Of a stretch of 64,000 bases of DNA, positions 16,266-63,054 are shown in pieces. A model generated the notes under the pieces. The model ran no database searches. It was not told the DNA's origin and saw only the letters and a list, made by a program, of their open reading frames with translations. How positions within the stretch are numbered: position 1 is the first letter of the stretch; the number at the start of each line of letters is the position of its first letter. A program made the position numbers and the translations under genes. The stretch lies in contig CAUEEP010000300.1 of NCBI GenBank assembly GCA_958450365.1, positions 112,742 through 176,741 on the forward strand. Direction: 5' to 3'. This DNA comes from Mesorhabditis belari. Taxonomy: Eukaryota > Nematoda > Chromadorea > Rhabditida > Rhabditidae.

Positions 16266-16347
16266 ACTTGTGACTCGAACTTTCCGATTAATTTGGGAAC
16301 TGTTATAACATAGTAAACTTGGAATTTGAGTTCAACTTTCCGAAGCC

Positions 16348-25298: not shown

Positions 25299-27899
25299 AT
25301 GGGCAAAGAAATAATTTTTCTGATTATTCTTGTTTCCCTACTGGCGATCAACTATCGAAAAGATCTCTGGAAAGTCGCTTTGTGGCTGGAAGATGCGCAT
25401 TTCCCGTTGGAAGGTCGGTTTTCAGATTTCAGATTTCAGATTCCCTGCTGCACCCTAAATTGCTCGAAGTCTCGAAAATCCCTTATCAGAATCTATCGAT
25501 GTGGGGTTGGAAAATGTAGATCTGACGATGAGATCTTGTGGGGGATTAGAGTGTTGACCTTCTGTGCAAAACTTGGAAACCGTAAAATCGGCATCAACTC
25601 GGCTCGGCGGGGTGCACTACGATTAGGGAAAACACGGCGTTATTGCTGATCATCGGAAATTTGCCAATCGGGCCCGAAGATCAGTTAGCCAGGTCAGAAG
25701 CCAGGCTCAAGACTGTCTGACTGTCTTGAGCTTCCAGCCAGCGCCGGCATGCACTTTTGTGTGCGCAGGTCAGAACTACCAAACAATAAGTTCACGAGGT
25801 GTTCAGTATTTACGGCGACTTCTTTTTCGTATCTCCCAAGCGCCAATTTCAACCCTAATATGTTAAATGTTATCTGAAAATGATCAAGCGCTTAATATTG
25901 GCTACGTTTAAGTTTTGTAACGGCCCAGGAAACGAGCTTTGCTTTCGTTGTTTCCATTCAATTCAACAATCTTACAATTAGTTTTGACCTTCATTGTGGT
26001 CCGGCTACGAAAAGTTCCAGATTCTCCACTCGGCTCCAACATGGAAATAGATTTCTTTCTCATTTCAAAGAGAAACACAAAATTTATTTGCGACTGAAAA
26101 TTCAAATTTAACATGAAAGCATCTCGAAATCATTCTTTACTTTTATTTCTTTAAAGTTTCCCGTTTGGAGAAGTACAAAACATTTTACAAGCCATTGAAT
26201 AGGGCTAAATGAATAGCGCGCCTGGCTAAATCACGGGCACATCAAGTTAAAGAGTAAAATGATCAAGAAAATGAAAGCAAAGCTATTCTTTTGAAGATTA
26301 TTGAAAAGTCAGCTCTAGGCTTCTTTAAAAACCTTAAAAACTTCTCTTCTAACCCTCCAATTTCATCCAAATCAGTCTTAAAGCTAAATGAAACCAATTT
26401 AGATTCACCCGTGTTTCCGCTTGGCGCTTCGTTAATCAAATCAAGTGACGGACTAAGAATACCTGGCTTAAATGGTTGGTCTTTCATCAGCTTTTTACGA
26501 CAATATGCTAACGTTAAAAGAATCTAAACAAAAAAAAGCGAAAATTCATATTTTTTGCCGCACTAATTACAAGACGTAGATTCAACTACTGTTTTTAGCC
26601 TCAATCAAATGCATCGATCGATCAATTATCCCAAAATATCCCGTCTTGGGCGAGGGATGGAATAAACGAGTCTACTCTTTTGAGGAATTCGCTCTAAAAA
26701 CTCCGCACCTTAGCGGCCACTCGATGCGCCTTTGTCAGAAGAAATTTTTCACGAAAATCGACTCGGTACGGGAATTTTTCTACAGATTTAGCCGATCTAG
26801 AACACACGACACTTAAAAAACCAATTTCCAGGAGAAACTCTGCCAATTGCAGCTTCGCGAGTCTTTCCTCCGCGAAATCCTCTGGCTCAAACGGCTAGAA
26901 AATGACCCGAATGTGCCTAACGTGGGTCGATTTCGAATTGAAAGTTCATCCTGGAACGCACAAGGCTTACTCTAAAAGTTTTAAGCTCGAAACTCGCTTT
27001 GGGAATTCTATCTTATTCGGGGTGATAAATGGCTTTGAAAATGAAATCTGTACAAGTTAAACTGGAAAACGCTAGTTTTCATCGAGTTTCCATTTCTAGC
27101 TGTTCTCCTACTGTGCCGAGCTGGATAACTACTCGATTTTGATTGAAAAAGGCCAGCCAGTGACTACTTTATCCCTGCTGGCTGTCACTTTACAGCAACG
27201 GATCGCCATCGTCCATCAGATCACCGGTTTCCTCCTCCGCAACTCCGAGATCGATTTTCGGGACTTTCGAAGGCAACAAGTTCGTGAACTACTGCTGTGA
27301 GCTCCAGATCGAAGAAATTTCAAGAAAATTTCAAATTTCAGTTCGTTCTCAACGCCGAGCTCATCCCGTTATTCGTCGACTTTGATGATGTTGTCAAGAA
27401 GGGGAACGGCGGCGGTAATTGTTTTAAAAATCAGCATTTTGGCTTGAAGCAAGGGAACAATCATAAATCGTTCAGATGACACAAAAACAGCCACTCAAAT
27501 CTATCGATCAATGATTTACGAGTTTCTCGCCGTTGGAGCAAACGAGACCCAGGTGAAATATCGTCAAAAAAGCATTATAGCCAAAAAATCTCGCTGATAT
27601 CTAAATCCTGGATGTCAGCTTCAAAAAAGGTCGAGTTACTGTAGCTTGATCACTATTTATAACAGACTAGTTTAACAGACCAGCGCTCTATGACCTCAAG
27701 TCCAAGAAAACACTATAAAACAGTTAACTCGCTTTTTTAAGGTCAAATTTCTAAATTCTGGATGTCATGCTACAAAAAGAAGCTATTTTACGGCGTCTAG
27801 ATCACTTTTTAGCTCTCCACCCTTCGTGACCTCGATCAAGTACACGACCGTGGCCAGCTCTCCGTTCATCTTCTAGACGATTTTTTGAGTAGATTGTAA
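25299..27899 (+). CDS. Secretory-pathway kinase-like protein resembling VLK/PKDCC
   Basis: The supported exons after the first are 26599-26765, 26832-26921, 27100-27279, 27342-27414, 27476-27552 and 27813-27899 (TAA); all phases agree. The first exon starts at ATG 25299, behind a CTTTCAG acceptor, with a signal peptide or anchor (EIIFLIILVSLLAI) at residues 4-17. The glycine loop reads LGEGWNKRVY. Further on are FLREILWLKRLENDPNVPNL, ILIEKGQPV, then DFRRQQFVL and LFVDFDDV. These match the order and wording of human PKDCC (GAPV, DFRPRQFVL, TDLDD) as I know it. VLK phosphorylates tyrosines of secretory-pathway and extracellular proteins. The exon or exons between 25413 and 26599 are unresolved. 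The protein is shorter than PKDCC (about 490), and activity is uncertain. Confidence 0.6.
25705..25731. other. Perfect 9-bp hairpin inside the kinase-like gene's large intron
   Basis: GCTCAAGAC (25705-25713), a 9-nt loop, then GTCTTGAGC (25723-25731). It lies in a GC-richer patch (25660-25760). No function is evident. Confidence 0.4.
25985..26045 (-). repeat. Inverted copy of the 13407-13455 segment
   Basis: On the minus strand it reads MLEPSGESGTFRSRTTM again. It lies in the unresolved intron of the kinase-like gene. The remaining sequence 26050-26590 shows no further coding exon I can support. Confidence 0.5.
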
Positions 27900-28494: not shown

Positions 28495-28499
28495 CTAAG

Positions 28500-33152: not shown

Positions 33153-33199
33153 CTCCCCTAAATGAAAAATTACAGCAGAGATAACACCGTAATTAATAA

Positions 33200-34625: not shown

Positions 34626-34649
34626 ATTTTTTAAAAATGAAACACATTT

Positions 34650-37600
34650 ATCAAAAGTCTGGTTAAAAGCCATTACCCTCTGCATTTCTCATTCTCACAA
34701 AGTTCCATTTGATTTGTTTATCACTGTTCCCTCGCACAAATGAACTTGGGAATGGGCTCTATTGTCAGTCAGCTGGCCTTTTCCTTTCCTTCCCTTCCAC
34801 TTTCCTTTCCCTCTAGGCACTCCACTCGAGAAATCGCGTCACACAGCCTAAAAGAACATTTAGCTGACAATCCTAGTTTGTTCTCTGACTTAATTTCAGT
34901 TGACAACCTCTATAACTTTCTTAGTTTTTATGTGTTCTCAGTTTCAGTTTTAGTTTTTCTTAGATGATTCTGCAGTAATCCTTATTTTTATCGTTTTCAT
35001 TGCAGGTTCTGGTTCTTTGACGCGTTTTGGATCTACAGAGATCTATCGGATCTTTGACGCGCTCTGGATCCACATCAACATCATCTACAGAATTCTATCA
35101 ACTCACTTCGAAGGATCTAGCTCAGCAGGAAGTCAATGGAGATGACTTTTGTTTATTTCTCCTGTCTCCAAGTCAATTTTCTAATTCATTCTTACTTCTA
35201 GAATCTTGATTTAACCTTAAAAAGTTGAGAATCCAAGCAAAAAACTAATCTAAACCCAATTTAAACTAAAATTAAGATTCCTGAGAACCGCTTTTGAAGT
35301 TATTTAATTAATATGATCATGTTTAAGACAAATAGGTAAATCTCAGAGTTGCTATTCTTGCTAAGAAACATTTCAGTTTTCCAGAAATATCAGTTTAGCC
35401 ATTTACCAGTCATTTCCTTGTTTCTCTGCCCCTAAAAATCCAAAACTCCAATCAAATCATGCCCGTTGTTAAATGTTGGAAAGAAATCCCGCTCTTTCCT
35501 TTTCCTGGGCGTCACTACGCTTTTTTGTTTTTTCTTTTTCCCGTTTCCTGGCCTAGGGTCAGCGCTGTTATGCTCAATCCCTTTACGCCTGAGACTCCTT
35601 TGATTTCTAGGGATAACATTCTTTGGAAACTTTTGAAATTGATTTCCTGGAACGCACACTTGACATTCCCAGTGTTTCTAGAAGCTTTGACAATTTTTGA
35701 AAGATTTAAATTATCAGCATTTCTCCATCAAAGCAAATCTTTTTATTTTTCTAGGAAATTTATTTTTTGGAAAGTAAATTTAGCCAAGCTGGAATGCACA
35801 AAAGGCTATAAAATCGAATTTTGCTATTTTTTGGCATTTTTGAACATTCGGTTTTTTCAGATTTCTGGATCAACATCAATATTCTCGTTTTTCTGAGAAA
35901 CTAATTTTTTTGGAAAGGAAATTTAGCCAAGCTGGAATGCACAAAAGACTATAAAATCGAATTTTATTAAAAATTTTTATTTTTAAAAAGCTTTAAAAAC
36001 TCGATAAGCGATTTCATCGCCACTGACTCATCCTATCAAAAGACTAAAAAACAGAGAAAAAAAAATCGTGATCGTCTGTGTCGACTGTTTGTTTTTTTTG
36101 TTTTGTCTGTCTGATAGTGAGAGGGGACACGGAGGAGACAATTCCGACTATTTGTCATGTTTTTTGATTTAGAGACGAGACTGACCCCCTAGAATCGAGA
36201 ATATCGCAAAAAAACGAAAACTAAAGAGTTTTTCGTCTTTCCTGGATATCACATTACAGTTTTTTAAAGTCGGAACGGTTTTTGGTAGGATTTAAAATCT
36301 TTCACCTACTTAGGATCGAGACTGGCCCCATAGAAGCAAGAATTTTAAAGAAAAGCTCAAAGCAAAACTTTTTTCGTCTTTCCTGGATATCACACTAATT
36401 TTTTTAAAAGTCTATTCCACTTTTAGGATTTAAAAAAGCTTCAGCTTTTCAGTACTCTCCTTTGAGGATCTGATGTCGACGAGATTCTCGAAATTTCTGT
36501 GTCGACTCGTTTCTCAGTGTTACACTTTCACTTTTGGCCCTTTTTTTGAAATGTTTGTGTCCCAGGATGGATAGCAACACCACCAAAAAAGCCAAAGAAG
36601 GAAAAAAAGAAAAAGGGGCTTTCTTCTCCACTCAGGATCTGGACCTAAACCGAGCCCACGATTTTTAACGCTACATCCAAATTTTTCTTTCTATTCTCCA
36701 TTGTGACATCCAGGATCAGTGAATTCGTTGTTAGAATGCTAGAAAGTTGATCGGGTAATGGCTTAAGTCACTGGAGCCGTTGTGATGATGATTCGACAGT
36801 CACGATTCGTGTCTTTGAATCCGATTTTCTTTTCTCGTTCGCTCTCGTGCCTTCCAGGATTTACGGGTTTAGTATTTGTTTCAGCGTTGAAACAGTTTTT
36901 TCTTTCATTTAATACCCAGCTATATATCACGATTCGACAGTCACAATTCGTGTATTTGGATTCGATTTTCTTTTCTCGTTCGCTCTCGTGCCTTCCAGGA
37001 TTTACGAAATCGTTAATAGATTTAGAAGCCTTTCTAAAACGCACCTTTTTAATCGTACGGGGTAGGCAAGAAAACAGATCGGTTTTTTGCGGTTTTAGCT
37101 GAATTTTTATGTGAATTCTCAATGTGTAAATTTGCTTTTTCTTTATTGAATTCATCTATTTGTACTTGAAATTTATATATTTATACCCGTTTCCTGAATT
37201 ACACCTTTTCGCTGATCGGGGTACGGTAGCTGAAGCGCACTTTAGAAAACAGGTTTTGTGATTTTGGTGATTTACTTTAAATTTCTCTTTCTATTTACCA
37301 TTTAGACATCCAGGATTGGCGAATTCGTTTCCAGAATCCTAGAAAGTTGACCCACTGATCGGGGTACGGTAGCTGGAGCTCACTTTAGAAAACAGGTTTT
37401 GCGATTTTGGTGATTTACTTTAAATTTCTCTTTCTATTCTCCATTGTGACATCCAGGATTGGCGAATTCGTTTCCAGAATCCTAGAAAGTTGATCGACTG
37501 ATGGTTTAAGTCACTGGAAAGCGTTTGATCCGTTTTCGACGCGACGATTCGGGTCTTCGGATCTGATTTTCTTGCCGCGTTCACTCTCATGCCTTCCATG

Positions 37601-40640: not shown

Positions 40641-40645
40641 AAGAA

Positions 40646-43102: not shown

Positions 43103-43169
<67 letters not shown>

Positions 43170-49100: not shown

Positions 49101-52100
49101 TCATTGTAAATCTGGATTTCATTGAGATTTTTAGGTAAACGGCGGCTCCGAAAGTCACTCGGATGGCAAGGACGAGTCGACGCCTGAGGACGACGAAGCG
49201 CCGGTGGGTTCTTGGATCGAAATTTCGGCAAGCTGCCAGGAAATCCATTTTCCCAAATTCCCACTCTTTGTCCTGGAGCACACGCTAGCCTTTAAAGCAT
49301 TCAGAAAACGAAAGTCGCGAATTTTGGCTTCATCGATTGTAGCAAGCGCTTCTTGACCTGACCTGGTCTTGACTGGCACCAAAATTTCGCTAACTTTCCT
49401 GAAAATCTCTTTTCCCTGATTGATCATCCTGGAAGTCACGCTAGCCCACAAAACGATCAAGAATGCGAATGCGCAAAATTCGAGTTTATTGAGAAAACCT
49501 AGCTGACGGACTGGCACCGAAATTTTGCCGATTGGTCTTAAAAAAGTCATTTTCCTCGATCACATTGTTCATCCTGGAACTCACGCTAGCCCTCAAAACG
49601 ATCAAAAATAAAAAAAGCACGAATTTTGAGCTTTCCAAGAAACTCGATTGTGCCAGCTGGTTGATGATTATCAAAATTCCGTCAAAAAAATCACGTTTTT
49701 CATATTTTTGGCTTTCATCCTGGAACTCACGAAAAGCGTTAAAAGGACTAAAAACGGGAAATTGTGAAATTTGAGCCTATCGCAAAAATTTCCTCTTTTC
49801 TGGAAACGACTTGAGTAAATGAAGGTTTTTCAGTTTTTCGGCTTCTTCTGTTTTTCGTTTTTTCAATTTTTCAAATTTTAACTTCAAATGATTCAAAAAT
49901 GCTAGAAAAATCAAATTTGAGTTTTTTTTTTGATGAAAACCTTGATATTCAGCTGTCAATTTTCACCAGTCAGGTGATTTTTTGAAGAAATATTTAAAGA
50001 AAAGTAATTTTTATATAAAGCTGAGATCTTTTGCTAGAGTTCTTCTAGAGATTTTTCTTTCCGATCAAATCAGAATCCAGCTCGCTTTCCACCTCACCTA
50101 GCCTTTCCAGGACTTGATTTACAACCTGGTCGAGCTGGATTCCGATCAAATCAGAATCCAGCTCGCTTTCCACCTCACCTAGCCTTTCCAGGACTTGATT
50201 TACAACCTGGTCAAGCTGGATTCCGATCAAATCAGAATCCAGCTCGCTTTCCATCTTACCTAACCTTTCCCGGACTTGATTTAGAACCTGGTCTGGCTGG
50301 ATTCCGATCAAAGCAGAATCCAGCTCGCTTTCCATCTTACCTAACCTTTCCCGGACTTGATTTAGAACCTGGTCTGGCTGGATTCCGATCAAAGCAGAAT
50401 CCAGCTCGCTTTCCACCTCATCTAACCTTTCCCGGACTTGATTTACAACCTGGTCCAGCTGGATTCCAATTAAATCAGAATCCAGCTCGACGCTGGCCTT
50501 AAGAATTAGGCAGCTCGCCAAGCCAAGCCAGCTAACTCTTGCTTGGCTTCCCTTCCAACAAATCCATTTCAATTCTCGTTCAGGTGATGGGCATGCGTCG
50601 TGGCGTTCACTTTTCCGTCGGCGACAAAAACGACGAAAACCCGGACCACAAAATGACCACCCATGAAGAAAGAGAGGGACAGCACACATTCAATTTGAAG
50701 AGCTGGAGGTGAATAGAAAGTGGTGAAAAAGAGTTTGACGTTTAAGTTGGAACGCACAACAGGCTTTAAGCTCATCTAAATAGGGGCTTTCACCGAAGTT
50801 CTCACTTCCGGAATTTCAAGGTATCTTCTCGGAGACGAAATTTCGAAATTTCGAATGAAATCTAGGGTTTTAAACGTATTTTCTGCGATCCTGGAAGTCA
50901 TTCTAGGGTTTCTAATAGATTTGATCGCTTTCAGAATCAATTTCACAATTCCGGAATTTCAAGGTATCTTCTCGGAGCTGAAATTTCGAAATTTTAAATG
51001 AAATCTAGGGTTTTAAACGTATTTTCGGTGATCCTGGAAGTCATTCTAGGGTTTCTAATAGATTTGATCGCTTTCAGAATCAATTTCACAATTCCGGAAT
51101 TTCAAGGTATCTTCTCGGAGACGAAATTTTGAAATTTCGAATGAAATCTAGGATTTTAAACGTATTTTCTGCGATCCTGGAAGTCATTCTAGGCTTTCTA
51201 ATAGATTTGATCGCTTTCAGAAACATGAAAACGATCGAGCATCCACCGATCATCGATTTCTATCGGGATTCGATTGATGTCGTTGACGTGAATCGACCCT
51301 CGATGGCTCAGCTCATCCATGGCCAAAAAACGATCAATGAGGAGATTCTGGAGATCGACGAGTTCAGGGTTAGTGTTTCTTTGTTTTTCAATGGCTTTCT
51401 CACGTAGAGCATCTTTCCGAGTTGTTTTCGAAATGTTGACCCAAGTACCGTAATCCTTTTGGCCTTCCAATTGAAATCCTAAATGTTTAAAGAAATAAAA
51501 AGACGCTGTGACATCCAGAACATCCAGATTTGTCTTTGGAACTTGATGTACTTTGTGTTCGCAAGATTTTATGGAAGTAAACTCTTTCTGGTGCACTTAA
51601 TTCACGGGATTACGGTATTTGAGTCAATATTGAAGGGTATTCTCTTAAAATAAAGAATGATTTGATAAAGGCTGCAAGGAGAATGTTGATTTTGGGAATT
51701 GAGTGGGTTAGGAAGGATGACGAAGATGATGAATGACGCTTTGTGACCAAGATCACTTTTTAAACCTCTACAAGAAGCCAAGACACCAAATTCCTTAGTG
51801 ATCAACTTTTGATTTGAATTCCTTTTCAGGCTCAAGCTTACGATATGATTGATCAAGGTGGACCGCCACCAAAACCCGAGAAAATCGAGAAGTTAGCCCC
51901 GCCACCATCAGCGCCAAGGTATGATCGCTAGCTAGCAAAGCTAGTTAGCTTTGCTCGCTATTTGCTTAGGCTTAGGCTAGCTAGCTAGCTAGCAAACGCC
52001 AAGCAAATAAATTAGCTAGCTAGCAAACGCCAGGCTTATTCCCAAAATTTCAGCAAGTATAAATGAGCTTTATAATCTCTATTTTTAGCCGAAAAACACG

Positions 52101-55100
52101 GGGTTTTTGTTACAAAGAAGCTGTATTTCAAAAAAAGAATTTCTTTTTGGTGTCATCTTCTTGGCACTAACTAGAGAATGTTGTTAACTTATCTATCGTT
52201 ATCTATCGTGGCTTTTGACTCGGTGAAATTGCCTATTTGATGCAGTTTTTCACGCTGATTCCGAATCAGCGCTCAGTTTTTGCCAAACGTTTCTATCGCG
52301 AGATATTCGGCATACAAGTTTTTGGGGGCCACCGCGGCCGTTGACTGAAGACAGCAAGCCCTCATAAAGTCTTCGATCGTCCGGAGCCCTCGATCGAGTA
52401 TTTCTAGGCCGTAGAATCTAAGATTTGACATAACAGAGCTTATGAAAACAATTTTAAAGACAAAACGAATGGGTTGATGAATTGGTTTTTGAGAAATCAT
52501 CGTGTAAACATGCAAACTGTTCGGAATAGGATGTGTCCATATCCCTTGGTTCAGGCAGAATATTTATTAAAGCACCGAAGGGTTTAAATACCGAAAAGTT
52601 GAACACGATGATTACACCTTTCGGAAGAAGTTCCGAACACAAACATTGTTTTTTCGCCGAAGAACTTTTCTTTCCAATCCAATCTAAAAGATACGCTCAT
52701 TTTAGAACGAAATTCGGCTGGGTTGAGGGCGTTTTCGTGCGCTGTATTCTGAATATTTTCGGTGTCATGCTCTACTTGAGAATCTCGTGGGTGACCGGCC
52801 AAGCTGGAGTTTGTAAGGGGTTTTTGGTTGAAATGCTAAAAAGCTTTTCAATTTCAGTGCTCGGCATCGTCATCGTCCTTTTAGCCTCGATGGTCACGAC
52901 GATTACCGCAATTTCGACGTGCGCCATTTGCACGAATGGCGAAGTGAAAGGAGGAGGCGCGTACTTTTTGGTAAAATTATTAGCGTAAAGAATTCGAGGG
53001 ATTTCTCAGATCTCGCGCTCACTTGGCCCGGAATTTGGCGGCTCGATTGGGTTGATTTTTTGTGTCGCAAATGGGGTGAGAGGAAAAAAAAGCAAAAAAA
53101 AGCGAAAAAAAAATCGAATTTTATTGAGATCACGGTTTTCAGGTAGCCGCCTCAATGTATGTTGTCGGTTTTGCTGAAACGATTCGGGATATGTTAGGTG
53201 AGTGATTTTTGAGTGATTTGATCATTTCAAATCGATATTCTCCTAATTCGGGCATTTTTTTTGAAAATTCATTCAGATTCAGATTCAACTCCTTGAAAAC
53301 CACAAATTTTCAGATAAAAAAGGCACTAGACTCCCTGAATTTCCCTTTTAATGACCCCCTAAGCGACGGGGTGCTAGAAAGCGCGCGATTACGTGCCCGC
53401 ACAAAGTACATCGGTTGGAGAAAGGAGAAAATAGGGAGCTGGACGATTTTTGGGGTTATTTAATCGGGAATCTACAAATCCAATCTCATTTTTCGCGGAT
53501 CTGGAACGCATTCAAGTGCCAGAAAGCGCGCGATTACGTGCCCGCACAAAGTACATCGGTTGGAGAAAGGAGAAAATAGGGAGCTGGACGATTTTTGGGG
53601 TTATTTAATCGGGAATCTACAAATCCAACCTCATTTTTCGCGGATCTGGAACGCATTTGACCGCTTTTTCGACTAAATTTTGTAATATTAAGAGATTTTG
53701 CGAATTGGCCGAATTCCATAAGGAGTTGGGTAGTTTTTGGCGTCTATTAGTCTAAAATTTAATAATTTAAATATATTTCTTGCTAATCTGGAACGCATTC
53801 GATTGTTTTCCTAAATAAACTTGGTAATATCAAGGTCTTGAAAAAGATTAGAGTAAAAGGGTCAGCCGATTTTATAATACGCGTGTTGAAATCACATTCA
53901 TTCAGCGAGATTCCCACTAGACACGTTGAAAACATCACACCCGCCTCTCCTTTCCCAATTCCCCCTTTTATTGACCCCCTCAGCGACGGGGTGCTAGAAA
54001 GCGCGCGATTACGTGCGCGCACAAAGCACATCGGTTGAAGGAAGGAGAAAATAGGGAGCTGGACGGTTTTTGGGGTTATTTAATTGAAAATTTATGAATC
54101 TAACTTGATTTTTTGCGAATCTGAAACGCATTTGACTGTTTTTCTGACTAAATTTGATAAAATCAACAGATTTAGCAAATTAGCCGACTTCCATAGGGGA
54201 CTGGACGCTTTTTGGCCTTATTTAATTGAAATTTTACAAATCTAGCTTGATTTTTTGTCAATCTGGAACGCATTCAAGTGCCAGAAAGAGCGTGATTACG
54301 TGCGCGCACAAAGCACATCGGTTGAAGAAAGGAGAAAATAGGTAGCTGGACGGTTTTTGGGGTTATTTAATTGGGAATTTACGAATCCAATCTGATTTTT
54401 TGCGAATCTGGAACGCATTTGACTGATTTTCGTTTCAGTTGAGATCTCCTATTCAAGCAATGAGACAAAGACGTTTCTCGTGGAGCATTTTGGGTGAGAT
54501 TCATGGAAAATAAAGTCGATTCAGCTAAATGGCTTCATTTTGAAGCCAACTTCTACGCAAAAACTATGCTTTAACTTCACCGTTAACTGTTTAAATGTTT
54601 TCAGGCCAATCGAGGATGGATTACCGAATTTCGTTCGACTCATCGGAATTGGTGGGTTTTTGAAACAAGTTGATGAACTATTTTCAAGTATTTTCAAGTA
54701 AATCATAAATTTTAAAAACGATTTTACAAGTTCTGGAAGGCACAAAACATTTTGCAGAAAAGAGTTTGCAATTTTAAGGAAAATAGGAAAATTGAGTGGT
54801 GAAGCGTTTGACTTTAGCCCGTTTTCTCGGCGATTTTCCAGCTTTGACCCAATTTTGAGTCAATTTTTGGTAAAGCTGGATAGCACTAAGCAATTTTGGT
54901 TAAAAATTAAGCAAAGAATTAGCAATTAAATGTCCGCCGATTTCTTACCATAACCCCTAAAAGTCCGCCAATTTTCTACAGTAACCTCGTAAAATCAGAG
55001 CAGTTTTCAGGCCAAAAACCTATCGTAACCCACAATTTCTAGCGTCTTGCCTCCTCCTGCTGGCCATTGTCTTCATCGGCACGTCGTTTGAATCGAAAAT

Positions 55101-58100
55101 GCAGATGGGCTTATTGGTGATTCTGCTCTCGTCGATTCTCGACTATTTTGCCGGTGTTTTGGTGAGTGAATGTTGTTTTTAGCAAAAGATTTCCTCAATC
55201 TGGAGCACAGGAGAGCTATTGTTTTCGTTTTTAAATCGAAATTCATCATTTAAACTTTTTCAGTTCCGTCCAATCAGTGATCATATGCACGTTCGTGGAG
55301 CGACCACTTTCAGTTGTGAGTGAAAGCTTTAAATCGAAATTTCTAGCATCAATTAGGCTCTAAACCACTGGCTGATTATCTAAGTTAATTATCTAAGTAA
55401 TTTTACAGTAGTCTTACCGGTTTAATTACCCGAATCCAGTTCAAAAACCCGGTTCAATTACCCAGTTCAGTTTCAAAAGCTCGGCTACAGTATCCTAGCA
55501 AAATTCCCATGCAAAAAGCTACAGTATCTTAGCTACAGTTAGCAAAATTTCTGAATTCTTGCATTGTTAATTCAGCAATCCTTTCAGGGAACACGCTGAT
55601 GGCGAATCTGATGCCGAAATTCCGGAATGAAACCTTTTTCTCAGTGTTCTCCGTCTATTTCCCTGCCGCAACAGGCATCATGGCCGGCGCAAACATTTCT
55701 GGAGATCTAGCTGATCCGCAGGTTGGACAAAAAACTGGTATAATGCTCAGCAATGTTCCAGTTTGGCTCTAGACTTAGGTCCAAGCCTGGGCTAGATCCT
55801 TGCCAAAAGTCTTGAACCCAAGCCTGAGCTTGAGCTTAAGCCTGAGCCTGAGCCCAAGCTTGAGCTTGAGCTTAAGCCTGAGCTTGAGCTTAAGCCTGAG
55901 CCTGAGCCTAAGCCTGAGCCTAAGCCTGGGCCTAAGCCTGAGCCTAAACAAAGCCAAAAGCCAGCCTTGGACCCACAGGGACATACAGGGTGACTGGAAA
56001 TAACCCAGACAACCTTTTTGACTCGATCTTTACATGCAAATGAACTAAATACTTTAAAAAATTGTCAATTATACACGCTTATTGGTTTTCGTGTTTTTCT
56101 TAGCATCAATCCCTCCATTTTGACTATCATTCGATGCAAAATGCAAAATGATGCAAAGGCAGAATTCCGCGTCGAATGATACCAAAATGAGCTCAAAATG
56201 TAGTATTCATGCAAAGTTATAAGGCAAAAGGTAAAGGGACACCCATAGTGGGCGGGGCTTAGGTTTTTCGTGTTTTTCTCAGCAAGAATTTATTTATTTT
56301 GTCTATCTTGGCTATCATTCGATGGAAAATGAAATTCCGCGTCGAATGATAGCTAAATTAGTTCAAAATGTAGTATCCACGCAAAGTTATTGGCTAAAAA
56401 AAGCTAAGCCCCGCCCCTTAACCTTTTTGCCTTATAACTTTGCATGGATATCATATTTTGAGCTCATTTTGGTATCATTCGACGCGGAATTTTATTCCTA
56501 CATAAAATGATAGTCAATATAGTCAAAATGGAAGGATTGATGCTAAGACAAATCCAAAAAACCCGCCCACTATGGGTGTCCCTTTACCTTTTGCCTTATA
56601 ACTTTGCATGGATGCTACATTTTGAGTTCATTTTGGTATCATTCGATGTAGAATGAAATTCCGCGTCGAATGATAGTCAATATGGTCAAAATGGAAGGAT
56701 TGATGCTAAGAAAAACACGAAAAACTTTAAACTGCCAACAGCAAAAAAAAAAAAAGGGAAAGACAGATCTTAAAAAGATTATTTGTTTAAGAGGTCATAG
56801 AATCACTTTCTAAAGCCCGAACCACTTACCGTACCCGATTTTACTCGATTCCAGGGCGCGATCCCCCTCGGCACCCTTCTTGCCATCCTTTTCACCACAA
56901 TTATCTACCTCGTAGTCGTCATTTTCACTGGCATCACGAATGTTAGGCAAGTTTATATGTAAATCTCGAATTCTAGATCGCTTCAGAGATGCTGACGGCC
57001 TGCTTGCTCCATTATTCGACGCGGCTGGCGAGTTTATCGCCCCAAATTGCACTCAATCCGCTGAAGGTTGTCGCTACGGGTTGATGAACTATTATCAAGT
57101 AAATCATAAATTTTAAAAACGATTTTACAAGTTCTGGAAGGCACACAACATTTTGCAGAAAAGAGTTTGCAATTTTAAGGAAAATAGGAAAATCGAGTAA
57201 TGAAGCGTTTGACTTTAGCCCGTTTTCTCGGTGATTTTCCAGCTTTGCCCCAATTTTGAGTTAATTTTTGGCAAAGCTGGATAGCATTAAGGAATTTTGG
57301 AACATTTTCGAGCTTTCAGGTCGTCGAAAAAAAAATCGAGTAATGAAGCGTTTGACTTTAGCCCGTTTTCTCGGTGATTTTCCAGCTCTGCGCCAATTTT
57401 GAGTTAATTTTTGGCAAAGCTGGATAGCATTAAGGGAATTTTTGGAATATTTTCGAGCTTTCAGGTCGTCGAAAAAAAATCGAGTAATGAAGCGTTTGAC
57501 TTTAGCCCGTTTCTCGAAGATTTTCCAGCTCTGCGCCAATTTTGAGTTAATTTTTGGCAAAGCTGGATAGCATTAAGGAATTTTGGAATATTTTCGAGCA
57601 ATTTTGGAATATTTTCAGGTCGTCGAAATGGGGTCGATGTGGGGGCCGCTGATCACCGCCGGCATCTTCGCGGCCACACTCTCCAGCGCCCTAGCCAGTT
57701 TGGTCTCGGCACCGAAAGTCTTTCAGGTAGTCTTTCCTTTCAGGTTTGAGGCAAAATTTTTTTAGCATTTTTGTGTAATGGCTTAAGGATACAGTAAAAG
57801 TTAAAGTAAAACAAGTAAAAAAAATATTTTGCACTCGATGAGCCATCCATTTTCGTGAATTAAATCGTGGATCAAATTAAATCGCGAATTAAATTAAATC
57901 TAGTTATAAGGGTGAAATTTTAAGTTATTCAAGATAGAGAAAACGATGGTGTTATCAAAATCTAACAGAAGTTTTCCGATTCCGATTTTTGGGGATGGCT
58001 TTATCTTTTTTGAAACGCGATTTAGTTAGCATCTTATTGAATCAGCTACAGTACCAAGAGTTGGCTTATTCAAGAATAAGCATACACTATCATTATTTAT

Positions 58101-61100
58101 GCCGAACAACAGCCTAAACAAAGCTTTGGTAAAGTGCTTGAGTTTTTACGACTGATTTTTATTCGATTCCTTATTCAAGAAAAAGCATAAGCTGCAAGTA
58201 TCAGCACAACCAGCTAGATCATTCTGAAACGTGATGTATTGGGTTTGAATGAATTGAATTGGTGAATTGAAAACCGCCGACTTTGAACTAAAATTTATTC
58301 AACATAAAACCATCAATTCATTCCAAATTATCTCCATTATTATTAACGACTTCTGCCCATTTTAGCAGGCAATTTGGGATCCTCTTTCTGGGTAGGATTT
58401 GGTTTTGTGTGTGGGACAAGTGTGAGACTCAAAAATGGAGGACTGGAGATATCCCAGGTTTGAGCACTTTCTTCAAGGGGACCCATCTTGGTGTCAATAG
58501 AAAGTTGTAGAGAATGAAAATTTAGGCTTATAGCTAAATTCCCCCCCAGAAAGATATACTTAGTAGTTTCGCTTAAAATGCAAGTTTTATGAAATTTTCG
58601 TAAATTTGGCATTTCTTGAAAACCAGTTTCTGAATCGTTCTGGAAAATTTGGATATAAGCTTGATTTTTGATTCTCTAGCAACTTTCCATTACACCAAGA
58701 TGAATTTTCTTTTGAAGGAAGTGCCCAAACTGTCACATATAACAAATGACAATAGCCCGCAGTTTTCAATTCACCAATCCAATAGTTAACATCTTATTGA
58801 ATCAGTTACAGTACCCAAGAGTTGGCTTATTCAAGAAAAAACATAAGCTACAGTACCCTACAGGGTCAGCTATCAAACTAGAGTATTTTAGTGCTTTTCC
58901 AGGACATTCAAATCAAGTGTAGGCGAATTCTCAAAGTACAATAGTACATAGTACAATACTCTTAAACTACAGTAGCTGATTTGTACCGGTACTGGGATTT
59001 ACAAATCACTAAACTTCTTTCCAGTTTTTTAAATGTAAACCTTATTCAGGCAGTGTGCAAGGATCGCCTTTTTCCGAAAATCGACTTTTCGCTAAAGGCT
59101 ATGGGAAAAGATGATGAGCCGAGACGAGCCTACGCGCTCGTAGAATTCTCGCGTTGGCTGCGATCATGATTGGTTTGTATCTACGATTTTATTACTTAAT
59201 TCTAAAACACTCGTGTGCTTGTATTGGTTCAATCACCCAGCAATTTCTTGATTGATCGTTGACGCTGATCATGATAAGAAATTGAAAAGATCTCTCACCG
59301 GTTTAAATATACAAACCTATTGTGAATCGAGCTGCCGTAGGCTCGAACTTGTGCATTATAAATGAAACTTTAAAGAACTTAAAAGAACTTTAAAAACTAC
59401 TCTAGAAGATCAAGAACAAAGTGCATCAGAATAGTTTTTGGCTAGACACCGGTTTAAATATCTTTTGGTTGGCTGATATCTAATACGGTTCCAGTACGGT
59501 TCCAATACGGTTCCTACTTTGATCTAATACGGTTCCAGTACGGTTCCAATACTGTTCCAATACGGTTCCTATTTTAATCTAATAGGGTTCCAATACGGTT
59601 CCAATACGGTTCCTATTTTGATCTAATACTGTTCCAATACGGTTCTTTTCTTGATCTAATACGGTTCCAATACGGTTCCAATACGGTTCCTACTTTGATC
59701 TAATACGGTTCCAATACGGTTCTTTTCTTGATCTAATATGGTTCCAATACGGTTCCAATACGGTTCCTACTTTGATCTAATACGGTTCCAGTACGGTTCC
59801 AATACGGTTCCTATTTTGATCTAATACTGTTCCAATACGGTTCTTTTCTTGATCTAATACGGTTCCAGTACGGTTCCAATACGGTTCCTATTTTGATCTA
59901 ATACTGTTCCAATACGGTTCTTTTCTTGATCTAATACGGTTCCAATACGGTTCCAATTACTCAATCTTTTAGGTGACCTAAACGCCATTGCGCCGATCAT
60001 CTCGAACTTTTTCCTTGCCTCGTACGCGCTGCTCAACTACGCCTGCTTTGATGCCTCGTTCGCCGATTCGCCAGGTTTACTTCTTACAATTTTGATTTGT
60101 ATGAATTTAATTACCCAAATACAGTCGACGCTGATAGTAAATCATTCGGAAACTCCCGACAAAAGCGCTTAAGAAAATAAAAGGGCAAAAAACTCGATAG
60201 TAAGTAACTCGATAGTAAATCACGCTCGATAGCTAATCATTTTTGGAGAAACCCTTTGGAGCTAATCATTGGAGCATCCAATTTACTATCGAGCGTCGAC
60301 TGTAATCTCAATTTCTCACTGTTTTCAATAAATTGCTTTTAATAGCTCATTTTAATAAAAAGCTCATTTTACCGCTTTACCGGTTCAATTACCCAATTGC
60401 ACAAGGGATAAAACTCATCCTGATCCAACCAATTGATTATCTAGATTACCTAAGCACTCGTACATGTACATGAGTACATAGATAGTTAAACCAAAAAAGA
60501 CCAAACCAAAAAACCAAACCAAAAACTTGGGCTCAATGATCTTTACTAGCTTACTAGCGAAAATCGTTACCACTGCAATCTTTAACAAAAAATGTAGTGA
60601 AATCGAGATTCTAACAAATTTATCCTAAATCCTGGAGCGCACAAGAGATTTTCGCTGCTACAAAAAATCTAAATCTCAACTTTGAGAAAAAGTGAAAATT
60701 GTTACCGTTACCACAGCGATTTTTAGCCTAAAATGTGATAAAATCGAGATTCTAACAAATTATCCTAAATCCTGGAGGGCACAAGAGATTTTGGCAGCTA
60801 CAAAAAATCTAAATCTCAACTTTGAGAAAAAGTGAAAATTGTTATCGTTACCACAGCGATTTCTGATCAAAAATGTGATAAAATCGAGATTCTAACAAAT
60901 TTATCCTGGATCCTGGAGCGCACAGAAAACTTTGGCAGCTACAAAAAATCTAAATCTCAACTTTGAGAAAAAGTGAAAAGCGTTACTGTTACCACAGCGA
61001 TTTCTGATCGAAAATGTGATAAAATCGAGATTCTAATAAATTTATCCTGGATCCTGGAGCGCACAGAAAGCCTTGGCAGCTACAAAAAATTACCTACAGC

Positions 61101-63054
61101 ACAAACCGATTTCATCGCCCAACCATATTTTCCTTTCCAGGTTTCCGTCCCGGCTTCAAGTACTATAGCATGTGGATTTCGTTAGCCGGCTCGATTCTCT
61201 GCATTTGCGTCATGTTTCTCGTGAGCTGGTTTGTTCTTAGCCGAATCGATTACCCAATCTCCAACCTCTAGGGCAACCGCTCTGCTCACCTTTTTCTTCT
61301 TCGCCATCCTCTTTTATATATCTATTGCATCGAAAACCGGGTAAATTTTGAGAAAATCAGATTTTAGCTGGATTTAAACCAAATTCTCAAGGGCACTTTT
61401 TGCTTTTGGAAATGGAGAATTTCTGGTTTTGGCCGAATTTTGTTCATTTTGAGAAAAACGAAAATCGTTACCACAGAGATTTTTGGCCAAAAATGTGATG
61501 AAATCGAAATTCTAACAAATCTATTCTGGATTCTGGAGGGCACAAGAGACTTTGAGAGCTAGAGCTAAAGCTAGAGAAAAGCTAAATTTTCAGATGTGAA
61601 TTGGGGCAGCTCTACCCAGGCGCATTCCTACAAAAACCGCTTTCGTCAATGGTGAAATTGGTGAATACGGAGGAACACGTGAAAATTATCGGTAAAGGAG
61701 AAATTTTGAGGATTTTATTAGATTTTCTAGGCTTTTCTAAGCTAGATTCTAGGTTTGTCGAAGGCTTTTCTAAGCTAGATTCTAGGCTTTCAAGGATTTC
61801 TAGGATTTCTAGGCTTTACAAAAACAAAACAACTCTTGCCCGTTATTCGGGGTTTTTTTTTCTCTCGTTTCTTGCTCCTAAAGCTCCAGAACTTTCTTTA
61901 GAGACAATATTATTTCTTCTTTTTATTTAGTTTTAAAGAGGAGACTTTAGGCTTTAAAATAAATTAAAATAAAGCCTAATTCGACTAAAGAAATCTAAAA
62001 GAATCGAGGAAAAAAAACACAAGTCAAAAAAGCTCAAATCGGATTCACAAAACTCTCAAATCCAAGCCACGACCTATAAAATGGCGCCACACCAAACGGG
62101 AACAAGAGCAGCGGTGGTCTAGGGGATAGTGTGCTAGATTCTAAAACGAGCGGCATTTATTCCTGAGCGGGTTCAATTCCAGCTTGCCGCCAAATTAGTT
62201 TTCGGAAGTTTTCCAAAAAGTAGAGAATTTGGGGGCAAACGGAATTGAACCCGCGAGAAAAATCGGATCGGTTTTACAGCCTAGCACACTATCCACTAGA
62301 CCACCGCTGTTCTTGAGATCGTTCGGCTTAAAGTCCTCTTAAAGGGTGAGGTCGTGGTTTGGACCCGAAAACTAAGGCTCATTACTCACCGCTCCTTTCC
62401 CTTTGCAGATTTTACGAGGAAAACCCTTTATACGAAACGGGTATACCAGATGGACAGCTTGATTGTGCGCACACACAGAGAACACAAAGCTATTTCCTTC
62501 TTTTGCTTTGTAGATAGCATAAAAAGAAGCTATGGCATGAAAATTTGTGCCCAGGGGTTTTCGGGGACAGTGAGAATCGGTGGAGCCATTCATTTTATGC
62601 ACCATTAGCTTTTTTGCCGTCTACCTAATGTTATGGTATTTTTGAGCGCGACTTTTCATTTAAAAACCTCTGTAAAAGCTTTTCTTTAGGCCGCAACTTC
62701 TTGTTTTGACTGGAAATCCGGCGGCAAGACCGTCACTCGTTGATTTTGGTGAATATACGAAAGGGACAAGCTAATGGTTTGTGGATATGTGGTGCCGGTG
62801 GTGACTTTCCTTTTAATGAAATAGCTTCTTTTAAGCCAAAATAGCTTCTTTAAGTCTTTTTTGATTCGTCTTTCGTCTTTAATTCGTCTTTTAATTCGTC
62901 TTTAATTCGGCTTTAATTCGTCTTTAATTCTGGCTTTAATTCTTGAATTCTTGAATTTCCTATTTCTTTCCAGTACGCACCATGTGATCGCGTCTATTCA
63001 GTGCTTCAGAAGCTCGATCGTCAGCTAAACGATTGGTTGAAGAAGAAAAATTAA
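40646..63054 (+). CDS. Na-K-Cl cotransporter (SLC12A1/2 type), about 25 exons, 3' part with frame breaks
   Basis: Exons: 40646-40741, 48376-48525, 49135-49203, 50584-50708, 51221-51368, 51830-51918, 52706-52812, 52858-52970, 53010-53075, 53143-53197, 54439-54493, 54605-54651, 55043-55161, 55264-55315, 55588-55721, 56855-56946, 56987-57098, 57619-57726, 59050-59172, 59973-60074, 61141-61228, 61272-61340, 61594-61691, 62690-about 62810, 62974-63054. The first six give a polar cytosolic N-terminus. TM1 follows in [26 protein letters not shown]; then [65 protein letters not shown] text and [17 protein letters not shown]. These are NKCC rather than KCC signatures. It should couple Na, K and two Cl across the plasma membrane. 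Intron 56947-56986 has a GC donor. Phases agree up to 57726; frame breaks follow (see findings). The model of about 800 residues is shorter than the usual 1100-1200. AATAAA lies near 63106. Confidence 0.85.
40756..41650 (+). repeat. Seven tandem monomers of about 145 bp, each with CTGGATGTCAC
   Basis: CTGGATGTCRC starts at 40756, 40901, 41045, 41196, 41341, 41492 and 41636 (spacings 145, 144, 151, 145, 151, 144). Each is followed by GGGTTACGGTAGA-like sequence. Two monomer subtypes alternate (one with GATCCACTCAACTGG, one with GCTAAGGCTTTGCGG), a higher-order pattern. Confidence 0.85.
41815..41990 (+). repeat. Minisatellite of AAAGACCTAGATATCT-type units
   Basis: About ten 15-17 bp units of (A)AAAGACCTA(A/G)ATATCT in tandem, flanked by AT-rich intron. 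Confidence 0.8.
42972..43625 (+). repeat. 650-bp GTAA tetranucleotide array with GTCA and GTAG variants
   Basis: Units GTAA predominate, with GTCA variants in the first half and GTAG/GTGG in the second. On the transcribed strand of the cotransporter the variants create many GGTAAGT strings. The array ends abruptly at GTTTCC (43626). Confidence 0.95.
45490..47308 (+). repeat. 11-bp minisatellite (45697-46940) between two 210-bp direct repeats
   Basis: Units such as ATTCGGTTCCT, ATTCGGCTCCC and ATTCGATTCCT, all 11 bp, fill 45697-46940 (over 100 units). Because units have no stop in some frames, long frames reading [14 protein letters not shown] repeats appear; I do not treat them as genes. The array is bracketed by 45490-45696 and 47097-47308, which share GAATGAAAATAAAAGCGCAA and GGATTCGAAAAGGG and end at CTTATATACC. 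Confidence 0.85.
47920..49130 (+). repeat. Box-bearing monomers of about 142 bp around exons 2 and 3
   Basis: Boxes lie at 47920, 48062, 48202, 48675, 48817, 48958 and 49112. Each monomer carries TTTAAATTT(G/C)TCT, the box, and a GGTACGGTAGTTGGAGGTG-like stretch. Exon 2 (48376-48525) interrupts the series. Confidence 0.8.
49204..49960 (+). repeat. Diverged box-bearing monomers in intron 3
   Basis: Boxes at 49273, 49429, 49574 and 49720 read CTGGAGCACAC, CTGGAAGTCAC, CTGGAACTCAC and CTGGAACTCAC, each followed by a GCTAGCC-like stretch. The monomers share little with those of intron 2. Confidence 0.75.
50061..50480. repeat. 81-bp minisatellite, about five units
   Basis: The CCGATC/CCAATT landmark recurs at 50061, 50142, 50223, 50304, 50385 and 50466, exactly 81 bp apart. 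On the minus strand the unit is open and would encode a 27-residue repeat ([20 protein letters not shown] core). It lies inside intron 3 of the cotransporter. Confidence 0.9.
50747..51220 (+). repeat. Three tandem 143-bp monomers that include the 3' splice site of exon 5
   Basis: Boxes lie at 50747, 50891, 51034 and 51177. Each unit has GATTTGATCGCTTTCAG; the last is the true acceptor of exon 5 (51220), the earlier ones are decoys followed by AATCAATTTC. Confidence 0.85.
52273..52432 (-). CDS. Exon-like frame nested antisense in intron 6, unknown
   Basis: On the minus strand 53 codons starting [15 protein letters not shown] and including [10 protein letters not shown] and [14 protein letters not shown] end at TGA 52275-52273. 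The composition is richer in GC than the intron and reads like protein. A related frame (52642-52454) lies upstream in another phase. It could be a small nested gene or a relic. Family not recognised. Confidence 0.3.
53198..54438 (+). repeat. Intron 10: GC-rich cassette repeated four times plus box-bearing monomers
   Basis: A segment containing GCGCGATTACGTGC and CACAAAG(T/C)ACATCGGTTG occurs at about 53375, 53525, 53998 and 54285 (AGCGTGATTACGTGCGCGCA in the last). Two copies are preceded by GACCCCCT(A/C)AGCGACGGGG. CTGGAACGCATT boxes lie at 53501, 53646, 53788, 54263 and 54408, with a CTGAAACGCATT variant at 54121. Confidence 0.8.
54652..55042 (+). repeat. Intron 12: contains a copy of the exon 17 end and intron 17 start
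   Basis: The stretch 54668-54790 matches 57078-57210: TTGATGAACTATT, a TCAAGTAAATC donor region, then TTCTGGAAGGCAC. In intron 17 the first bases are the last codons of exon 17. Boxes lie at 54733 and 54876. Confidence 0.8.
55813..55960. repeat. Degenerate GCCTAA hexamer array in intron 15
   Basis: About 22 hexamers, GCCTAA, GCCTGA, GCTTAA, GCTTGA, GCCCAA and GCCTGG, in tandem. The variants are transitions of GCCTAA, the complement of TTAGGC. Confidence 0.8.
56087..56725. repeat. Large nested foldback element in intron 15
   Basis: Outer arms at about 56087-56262 and 56556-56725 are inverse copies, both with GCATCAATCC, TTCCGCGTCGAATGAT and GGACACCCATAGTGGGCGGG. Inside, 56270-56400 and 56401-56555 form a second inverse pair with the same CGAATGATAG core. 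The unit is thus a palindrome of palindromes of about 640 bp. Confidence 0.85.
57099..57618 (+). repeat. Intron 17: three 143-bp monomers with decoy acceptors for exon 18
   Basis: Boxes lie at 57134, 57277, 57420 and 57563. CTTTCAGGTCGTCGAAA occurs near 57313 and 57459, and the true site with ATTTTCAGGTCGTCGAAA ends at 57618. The decoys copy both the acceptor and the first codons of exon 18. Confidence 0.85.
57727..59049. other. Intron 18, with a 521-bp inverted-repeat element
   Basis: ATTGGTGAATTGAAAACCGC at 58258 and its near-perfect inverse ending at 58778 bound an element of 521 bp, MITE-like, without a clear target duplication. Outside it a direct repeat (58024-58087 and 58784-58848, AACATCTTATTGAATCAG type) brackets the region. 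No coding sequence was seen. Confidence 0.6.
59481..59959 (+). repeat. 11-bp minisatellite of ATACGGTTCCA units
   Basis: AATACGGTTCC, AGTACGGTTCC and TACTTTGATCT units, each 11 bp, repeat to just before the acceptor of exon 20. The unit shares the GGTTCC core and the length with the 45697-46940 array. Confidence 0.9.
60122..60302. mobile_element. Tc1-type MITE, 181 bp, TA target duplication
   Basis: The ends are inverted: CAGTCGACGCTGATAGTAAA at 60122 and CAGTCGACGCTCGATAGTAA read from 60302 on the other strand. TA flanks both sides (60120-60121, 60303-60304). There is no coding capacity. CAGT ends with TA duplication are typical of the Tc1/mariner group. Confidence 0.85.
60600..61140 (+). 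repeat. Four 141-bp box monomers in intron 20
   Basis: CTGGAGCGCAC/CTGGAGGGCAC starts at 60632, 60772, 60913 and 61054. Each monomer also has ATCGAGATTCTAA(C/T)AAAT and GTTACC(A)CAGCGATTT. A fifth related box is at 61531 in intron 22. Confidence 0.85.
62111..62191 (+). tRNA. tRNA-like sequence, acceptor and T arms intact, anticodon arm unclear
   Basis: GCGGTGG at the 5' end pairs with TTGCCGC at the 3' end over 7 positions (four Watson-Crick, three G-T). The T arm is GCGGG TTCAATT CCAGC with one mismatch, and contains a B-box-like GGTTCAATTCC. An A-box-like TGGTCTAGGGGATAGTG is near the 5' end. CTAG/CTAG can form the D stem. The part between D and T arms (29 nt) does not give a normal 5-bp anticodon stem; TTCTAAA would be the loop. 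Probably a decayed tRNA or tRNA-derived element. Confidence 0.45.
62230..62309 (-). tRNA. Inverted second tRNA-like sequence
   Basis: On the minus strand GCGGTGGTCTAGTGGATAGT starts at 62309 and GGTTCAATTCC is in the 3' part. A CTGTAAA loop would present GTA. Acceptor and T stems have more mismatches than in the neighbour at 62111-62191. The two face each other 38 bp apart and could form a long hairpin. They lie in an intron of the cotransporter. Confidence 0.4.

What the first reader, a model, noticed from the sequence alone, without database searches (positions are those of the whole stretch)
27608..61541. A CTGGANNNCAY box recurring at 140-151 bp spacing across introns and intergenic DNA
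Directly seen: forward boxes at 27608, 27758, 27903; 35647, 35789, 35932; 36242, 36383; 40756-41636 (seven); 47920, 48062, 48202; 48675, 48817, 48958, 49112; 49273, 49429, 49574, 49720; 50747, 50891, 51034, 51177; 53501, 53646, 53788; 54263, 54408; 54733, 54876; 57134, 57277, 57420, 57563; 60632, 60772, 60913, 61054. Reverse boxes fill 36709-39457 at 141-145 spacing. The monomers between boxes differ from block to block, while box and period persist. That is what one expects of a satellite superfamily held by a DNA-binding protein (as the CENP-B box is in alpha satellite) or of duplication in nucleosome-sized steps. None lies in the F-box/WD40 region or in exons. I know of no described element with this box.
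Basis: seen in the sequence. Interest (0 to 1): 0.88.

Follow-up and report, generated by a model that had tools for sequence, protein, structure and literature searches.

The report
Nucleosome-sized repeats sharing one DNA box
A roundworm genome carries many dissimilar short repeats that share one small DNA box about every 143 letters and a matching DNA-bending rhythm, as if each repeat were built to hold one protein spool; this could help show how such worms mark where their chromosomes are pulled apart.

Summary
The boxes are real: 68 exact CTGGANNNCAY in the window against 2.2 expected; genome-wide 21,598 against 2,742 for the reversed pattern. Pairs 131-161 bp apart number 6,324 (control 82); pairs 162-192 bp apart, 227. 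The host is a rhabditid nematode, species unnamed (COX1). The monomers are not one family: 106 sampled units form 74 blastn clusters. Shared are (i) an extended, about 19-bp box, AWYCTGGANSKCAYNNNAG; (ii) a 141-145 bp step, with no exact same-strand pair closer than 140 bp in the DNA read in full (exceptions elsewhere); (iii) an A/T wave of about 10 bp locked to the box, same phase in loci outside the window, clean on the left, less regular beyond +50; (iv) gaps between arrays that cluster near 323, 477 and 653 bp on either strand. I read this as a satellite superfamily in which each unit encodes one rotationally positioned nucleosome with the box near its centre. Closest precedent: the 19-bp box in CenH3-associated repeats of Meloidogyne; it is not a CENP-B box. 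A centromere role is inferred, not shown. PATC-like intronic function and box-mediated selfish amplification remain rivals.

The parts
26951..26961 (+). isolated exact box, first of the box-rich region (phase score 0.19)
27297..27307 (-). isolated exact box (phase score 0.26)
27608..27913 (+). array: degenerate box 27608, boxes 27758, 27903
35505..35942 (+). array: weak box 35505, boxes 35647, 35789, 35932
36242..36393 (+). array of 2 boxes
36703..36998 (-). array of 3 boxes
37230..37383 (+). weak box 37230 and box 37373; TRF period 143 at 37212-37502
37303..37599 (-). weak boxes at 37313 and 37599 around box 37446-37456
37916..38212 (-). array of 3 boxes
38543..38696 (-). box plus weak box 143 bp away
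39021..39461 (-). array of 4 boxes
39793..39803 (+). isolated box (phase score 0.45)
40126..40280 (-). box 40270-40280 plus weak box 144 bp away
40756..41646 (+). array of 7 boxes (last with one mismatch); 296-bp higher-order repeat
44083..44378 (-). array: weak box 44093, boxes 44236, 44378
44571..44581 (+). isolated box (phase score 0.22)
44632..45022 (-). 143-bp array with degenerate boxes
45496..45506 (-). isolated box (phase score 0.33)
47105..47115 (-). isolated box (phase score 0.29)
47615..48212 (+). box 47615, then array 47920, 48062, 48202
48675..49122 (+). array of 4 boxes, the last just before what looks like an intron end (read by eye)
49273..49730 (+). array of 4 boxes with diverged bodies
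50747..51187 (+). array: degenerate box 50747, boxes 50891, 51034, 51177
51508..51518 (-). isolated box, not phased (score -0.06)
53501..53798 (+). array of 3 boxes; body changes at box 53646
54121..54418 (+). weak box 54121, boxes 54263, 54408
54733..54886 (+). 2 boxes, bodies at background identity, spacing 143; the segment recurs at 57134-57277 (read by eye)
57134..57573 (+). array of 4 boxes filling an SLC12-gene intron (exons read by eye)
60632..61064 (+). array of 4 boxes in an SLC12-gene intron (exons read by eye)
61533..61543 (+). box 479 bp after the previous array (phase score 0.21)

Best explanation
A genome-wide superfamily of short, nucleosome-sized tandem repeats in a rhabditid nematode. 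SHOWN: units of mostly 141-145 bp share an about 19-bp box and an A/T wave of about 10 bp locked to the box, with a stretch of about 22-25 bp without the wave; the rest of the sequence differs from array to array; gaps between arrays are quantised in the DNA read; box bases change less than bodies within arrays. INFERRED: each unit wraps one histone particle with the box at or near its dyad; a sequence-specific DNA-binding protein reads the box; selection (or drive) acts on box, rotational phase and unit length, while bodies drift or are exchanged in whole units. MOST LIKELY ROLE, also inferred: these are dispersed centromere units of holocentric chromosomes, box and bendable DNA favouring CenH3 nucleosomes, working like the box-bearing CenH3 repeats of Meloidogyne.
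For: Spacing: (2,114 triplets against 0). TRF, blind to the box: 23 rows of period 140-149 against one each in the 130s, 150s and 160s; of 26 rows with period 130-165, 19 hold an exact box in the consensus, of 14 rows with other periods none does. Wave: 32 families from 103 array boxes, W power 25x (left) and 9.4x (right, +17 to +66) over the mean of phase-shifted nulls and above all 1,000 of them, 1.3x at +66 to +92; window and separate loci give the same phase, 9.7/9.3 and 9.8/9.7 mod 10.3; the profile of 39 units from other contigs correlates 0.74 with the window's, null maximum 0.65. 13 boxes from box-poor DNA show no wave (p 0.16 and 0.73). Box core mismatches 1 of 248 against body 245 of 3,262 in nine window arrays. 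Gaps of 165-700 bp: 19 of mean 323, 7 of mean 477, 5 of mean 653, of 35. Precedent: Meloidogyne.
Against: No chromatin or CenH3 data. In C. elegans, of the same clade, CENP-A is not tied to repeats (PMC9071541 passage) and cenH3 point sites do not coincide with satellites (PMC4595182 passage; the same paper does find long satellites with repeats over 160 bp in high-CENP-A regions). Arrays are regional, not evenly spread. 143 bp is short for a canonical nucleosome plus linker. Over +17 to +85 the right-side spectrum has more power at 8 and 11.5 bp than at 10.3. The mirror centre is ambiguous (-1.0, r 0.41; +4.5, r 0.35). Two of four other anchors with enough sites (AGCTW, ATTTTT) also give significant periodicity, far lower in amplitude but with similar ratio to null as the right side, and arrays are only slightly more periodic than neighbouring DNA (mean ratio 2.28 against 2.04; left half 1.67). 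The C5 family is weakly phased (0.12). 4 of 35 gaps do not fit. Some genomic pairs are closer than 140 bp (7 of 100 at 131-139; 105 bp at C5:39493).
Confidence: 0.45

Rival explanations
1. Positioned nucleosomes without a centromere role: a box-anchored version of the periodic An/Tn clusters (PATCs) that help germline genes in repressive chromatin stay expressed.
For: A/T wave of about 10 bp, on top of weaker 10-bp periodicity in the surrounding DNA; arrays fill introns of an SLC12 gene in the window; in C. elegans 10-bp WW marks germline promoter nucleosomes and PATCs lie in introns of germline genes (PMC7706728 passages).
Against: PATCs as recalled have no fixed box and no 143-bp step. Genome-wide, box orientation is only weakly linked to a 3' splice-site word: TTTCAG 606 against CTGAAA 491.
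Confidence: 0.25
2. A selfish, box-mediated satellite system: the box is a recombination or replication-slippage site that amplifies whatever nucleosome-sized DNA lies between two boxes; the A/T phase reflects which units amplify well, with no host function.
For: In several arrays the body switches at the box (53646, 54408, 40756, 36998); Meloidogyne monomer junctions also lie in conserved boxes (PMC3694981 passages); one window array contains what looks like a copy of an intron end plus the first exon bases (read by eye).
Against: Boxes without an exact neighbour in box-rich DNA are also phased (0.27 and 0.31; some have weak neighbours, and the scored positions were chosen on these data); gaps between arrays are quantised on either strand, which slippage alone does not predict.
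Confidence: 0.2
3. The arrays are internal parts of one mobile element family (Helitron- or foldback-like) that carries tandem repeats.
For: On contig C5 arrays of one family lie in an inverted pair around about 1.8 kb of DNA without a long reading frame; oyster Helentrons carry such arrays (PMC7492417, search listing only).
Against: Bodies differ between arrays, and the DNA between arrays shares only a few short BLAST hits (35 gaps). Array termini and target sites were not examined genome-wide.
Confidence: 0.07
4. Chance or base-composition artefact.
For: The motif is short and degenerate.
Against: 0 of 100 shuffles reach 68 matches; 2,114 triplets against 0.
Confidence: 0.01

Closest known systems
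CenH3-associated tandem repeats of Meloidogyne with a conserved 19-bp box (Despot-Slade et al. 2021; seen only as cited in passages of PMC9673304 and PMC11538461)
   Same: Nematode; short arrays; divergent repeat families sharing one short box; extended box here also about 19 bp.
   Different: Other clade (Rhabditina); many more body types in the sample; a 143-bp step and box-locked A/T wave found here (whether Meloidogyne repeats have them was not checked); box sequences not compared because the paper is not held; CenH3 association unknown here.
CENP-B box of alpha satellite, and the CENP-B box-like Box 1 of Meloidogyne (PMC3694981, passages)
   Same: One short conserved box inside diverged satellite monomers; monomer switches at the box.
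   Different: Sequence is not a CENP-B box: best match to the 9 essential positions near boxes is like random places.
Satellites with 10-bp WW periodicity that phase nucleosomes (review PMC8997354, passages)
   Same: 10-bp WW periodicity in units of about nucleosome length.
   Different: Here the phase is common to units with no detectable sequence similarity and is anchored on a box.
Periodic An/Tn clusters (PATCs) of C. elegans (PMC7706728 passages; details recalled)
   Same: 10-bp A/T periodicity in intronic DNA.
   Different: Here anchored on a fixed box with a 143-bp step.
C. elegans cenH3 point sites (PMC3975580, abstract and one section)
   Same: Dispersed single-particle units with flanking nucleosomes.
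   Different: Those coincide with transcription-factor hotspots and protect 60-100 bp, not repeats.

Membership tests
Meloidogyne-type holocentromeric repeats | short arrays dispersed in the genome | tested here: met
   short arrays on many contigs, but regionally clustered
Meloidogyne-type holocentromeric repeats | divergent families sharing one short box | tested here: met
   74 clusters of 106 units
Meloidogyne-type holocentromeric repeats | association with CenH3 | not testable with these tools
   no chromatin data
Meloidogyne-type holocentromeric repeats | same 19-bp box sequence | not tested
   original paper not held
CENP-B box satellites | NTTCGNNNNANNCGGGN core (pattern recalled; the 17-bp human box is given in PMC9673304) | tested here: not met
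   of 67 boxes 4 reach 7 of 9 positions and none 8; of 67 random places 4 reach 7 and 1 reaches 8
Single satellite family | similarity along the whole monomer | tested here: not met
   11 box pairs 141-161 bp apart with bodies at background identity
PATC | A/T clusters of about 10-bp period in introns | tested here: inconclusive
   periodicity met; germline link untested
Nucleosome-positioning satellites | WW wave of about 10 bp with SS periodicity | tested here: met
   WW 27x and 9.6x, SS 13.7x and 5.1x over null; whether SS is in antiphase was not tested; no nucleosome map

The most novel reading that the evidence does not exclude
Each unit is a DNA-specified centromeric nucleosome: a box at the dyad, a phased bendable wrap of roughly 118 bp and a short linker. 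Thousands of such point units, built from dissimilar sequence, would make a genetically encoded holocentromere in a rhabditid nematode, in the clade where centromeres are thought to be sequence-independent.
Probability: 0.3. Interest if true: 0.95.

Novelty: new variant of a known kind. Interest (0 to 1): 0.77.

Why it matters
Centromeric repeats in holocentric animals are nearly unknown; a 2024 paper names only Meloidogyne (PMC11538461 passage). A box-anchored, nucleosome-phased superfamily in a clade V worm would make two open questions directly testable: whether some holocentromeres are specified by DNA, and which satellite features selection keeps (here box, rotational phase and length rather than sequence). 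It also predicts a box-binding protein that can be sought by pull-down.

Tried and rejected
Rejected: chance; one recent repeat family; CENP-B box; strong coupling of boxes to 3' splice sites (only 606 against 491, although 23 of 24 exact boxes in the window's SLC12 gene region, 49135-61543, are in the sense direction). Rfam families at gathering threshold and tRNAs in the window: none. Arrays as parts of one mobile element: unlikely, not excluded. Array-edge phase: edges tend to lie at the box or about 50-75 bp from it, but the extension method is biased in diverged arrays, so no weight is put on it. One-mismatch boxes in TRF consensus units are not informative: 4 of 26 rows in the 130-165 class against 3 of 14 controls. 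A paper search for four 11-mers of the box gave 195 papers; the 20 listed look unrelated by title and none was opened. No report of this box appeared in the listings; passages, outlines or one section of some papers were seen; no paper was read whole. Species: not named; nearest named COX1 is 93% (Rhabditida, Litoditis). An 18S search failed three times.

Full report
Host. The window is the last 64 kb of contig C217 of an unnamed 207.6-Mb assembly. A mitochondrial COX1 fragment is 93% identical to named Rhabditida/Litoditis entries and 98% to an unnamed one, so I take the host as a rhabditid nematode. The window has a mariner-type transposase frame, Pao/BEL-type retroelement frames and a WD40 piece on the left, and on the right a cation-chloride cotransporter (SLC12) gene on the + strand (exons read by eye).

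The observation. CTGGANNNCAY occurs 68 times in the window (48 +, 20 -) against 2.24 expected and a maximum of 5 in 100 shuffles. All but one lie at or right of 26951. Genome-wide there are 10,666 + 10,932 matches against 1,405 + 1,337 for the reversed pattern. Two boxes 131-161 bp apart: 6,324 against 82 controls; 162-192 bp apart: 227 against 59 (some, for example in C312, C469 and C570, are spaced like 15- or 19-bp minisatellites). Triplets at 141-145 bp: 2,114 against 0; at exactly 143+143: 435 against 0. Of the first 100 pairs listed, 83 are 140-147 bp apart and 7 are 131-139. The boxes are regional: 19 stretches (190 kb, 5 kb of it N) from contigs C217, C540, C692 and C4 hold 6.

Is the box found without looking for it? 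Tandem Repeats Finder on the window and 34 fetched loci gives 23 rows with period 140-149 and one each in the 130s, 150s and 160s. Of 26 rows with period 130-165, 19 have an exact box in the consensus, 4 have one mismatch and 3 have more; of 14 rows with other periods (60-129, 166-274) none has an exact box and 3 have one mismatch (some rows overlap or describe the same array). Within nine window arrays the eight fixed box positions differ from the array consensus at 1 of 248 comparisons, bodies at 245 of 3,262. With L040 and L041 the totals are 24 of 478 and 597 of 6,463; 22 of those 24 come from two L040 arrays in which the script locked on a second, inverted box. In four C5 rows (two overlapping) it is 5 of 144 against 232 of 1,780.

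The bodies. Adjacent units have median body identity 0.69, against 0.54 (95th percentile 0.63) for units of different arrays (67 pairs, 400 null pairs). In 11 same-strand pairs at 130-165 bp both sides are below the 90th percentile of chance, yet 10 of the 11 are 141-146 bp apart. Of 106 units (67 window, 39 typed), blastn on the 69 bp after the box makes 74 clusters; such short stretches limit sensitivity. Using both flanks with the box masked, 103 array boxes make 32 families. So box and spacing persist where body similarity is no longer detectable.

The extended box. Weighted composition gives A/W at -3/-2, S at +6, K at +7, A/G at +14/+15, about 19 bp in all. The AG at +14/15 was found in the window and then counted in the genome: 5,065 of 21,598 against 157 of 2,742.

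The A/T wave. Aligned on the box, one vote per family, A/T content peaks near -52, -42, -31, -23, -10, -3, +19, +31, +40, +50, +58, +65 and +91 (the last is about -52 of the next unit) and is lower over -76 to -55 (mean 0.53 against 0.66 for -53 to +65). Power at about 10.3 bp is 25 times (left, -62 to -4) and 9.4 times (right, +17 to +66) the mean of 1,000 random phase shifts per family, above every shift; +66 to +92 shows 1.3x. The left side is clean: its spectrum peaks at 10.3 bp. The right side is not: over +17 to +85 power at 8 and 11.5 bp exceeds that at 10.3, because the peaks after +50 come 7-8 bp apart. The window alone (67 sites, 33 families) and L040+L041+C5 (72 sites, 26 families) give the same phase on both sides of the box; 13 boxes from box-poor DNA give none. 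Thirty-nine units from other contigs correlate 0.74 with the window's right-side profile, null maximum 0.65 of 2,000. A peak-minus-trough score, its positions chosen on these data, is 0.31 for 54 window array boxes, 0.27 for 13 window boxes without an exact neighbour, 0.12 for 12 C5 boxes and -0.10 for 14 boxes from box-poor DNA. Of four other anchors with enough sites, two (AGCTW, ATTTTT) also give significant periodicity: amplitude far lower than at the box, ratio to null like the box's right side; a fifth anchor had one site. Periodicity as such is only slightly stronger in arrays than in neighbouring DNA (2.28 against 2.04; left half 1.67). What is special is the phase lock to the box. W maxima fall near -0.6 and 9.5 mod 10.3; a centre at about +4.5 puts them about 5, 15, 26, 36 and 46 bp away on both sides, as minor grooves facing inward do around a nucleosome dyad (recalled knowledge). 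The mirror test favours -1.0 (r 0.41) or +4.5 (r 0.35), so the dyad claim is plausible, not proven.

The lattice. In the window right half, L040 and L041, exact same-strand pairs number 0 at 11-139 bp, 67 at 140-165, 1 at 166-279, 54 at 280-330, 1 at 331-419, 49 at 420-495, 1 at 496-559 and 37 at 560-660. Elsewhere exceptions exist (for example 105 bp at C5:39493). Counting weak boxes too (score 9.5 or more; 9 such in 185 kb of control DNA), neighbours on opposite strands come at 36-107 bp 21 times, mostly through the second, inverted box of L040 units, and at 141-153 bp 6 times; two same-strand pairs are 9 and 31 bp apart. Gaps of 165-700 bp number 35: 19 at 300-346 (mean 323.5, sd 13), 7 at 436-510 (mean 477), 5 at 640-674 (mean 653) and 4 at 172-242. 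Rayleigh R is 0.746 at about 161 bp, reached by 0 of 2,000 uniform draws, and the gap sequences share only a few short BLAST hits. Six opposite-strand junctions fall in the first class (309, 320, 331, 333, 342, 346). Genome-wide, same-strand pairs at 303-331 bp number 1,006 (control 30) against 227 at 162-192; the first 100 of them spread over the whole bin (mean 314) with 22 at 303-305, some of which may be two 151-bp steps, so the 323 mean is that of the loci read here. A simple reading is a 143-bp step for box particles plus 160-180 bp for each ordinary nucleosome in between; this is inference.

What it does. C. elegans cenH3 sites are single particles flanked by positioned nucleosomes and protect 60-100 bp (PMC3975580, one section read); its CENP-A is not tied to repeats (PMC9071541 passage), although long satellites with repeats over 160 bp lie in high-CENP-A regions (PMC4595182 passage). 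In Meloidogyne, CenH3 repeats are short arrays of five divergent families with a 19-bp box (PMC9673304 passage), the only animal holocentromere repeat named in PMC11538461 (passage). The architecture here matches that precedent in the two features that could be tested. Without CenH3 data the centromere role stays below even odds; the nucleosome-unit reading is stronger.

Limits.

Noticed in passing
L040:394-1643 and 6562-7542 (C77): Units carry a second, inverted box (CTGGATTTCAC) with centres 37 bp from the main box, in two separate arrays.
   Followed up: partly
G000:C5:16908-20064: Two arrays of one family in inverted orientation flank about 1.8 kb without a long reading frame; box coordinates suggest the same at C5:163.5-167.3 kb.
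   Followed up: partly
28412-28475 and 55820-55947: Degenerate AGCCTA and AGCCTG repeats; AGCCTA is a rotation of the complement of the nematode telomere repeat TTAGGC. The first lies close to where the box-rich region begins.
   Followed up: no
window about 26.9 kb: Change from nearly box-free to box-rich DNA within one contig; on C159 and C210 listed boxes extend over hundreds of kb.
   Followed up: partly
57189-57618: Monomers in an SLC12 intron appear to contain a copy of the intron 3' end and the first exon bases, as if built from local DNA (read by eye).
   Followed up: partly
49135-61543: In the SLC12 gene region 23 of 24 exact boxes are on the sense strand (exception 51508 -); the genome-wide splice-site word test shows only a weak bias.
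   Followed up: yes
5530-6465: Open mariner-type transposase frame (Transposase_1, E 2.4e-25).
   Followed up: no
14651-16331: Pao/BEL-type retroelement frames (Peptidase_A17 and aspartyl protease matches).
   Followed up: no
42972-43626, 45765-46932, 59478-59957: AGTA microsatellite, 11-bp minisatellite (TCCCATTCGGT) and repeats containing TACGGTTCC.
   Followed up: no
genome-wide: Of the first 100 listed pairs 8 are 152-156 bp apart and none 149-151, a hint of one-helical-turn steps above 143; five are 156 bp, mostly from similar units on C45.
   Followed up: no
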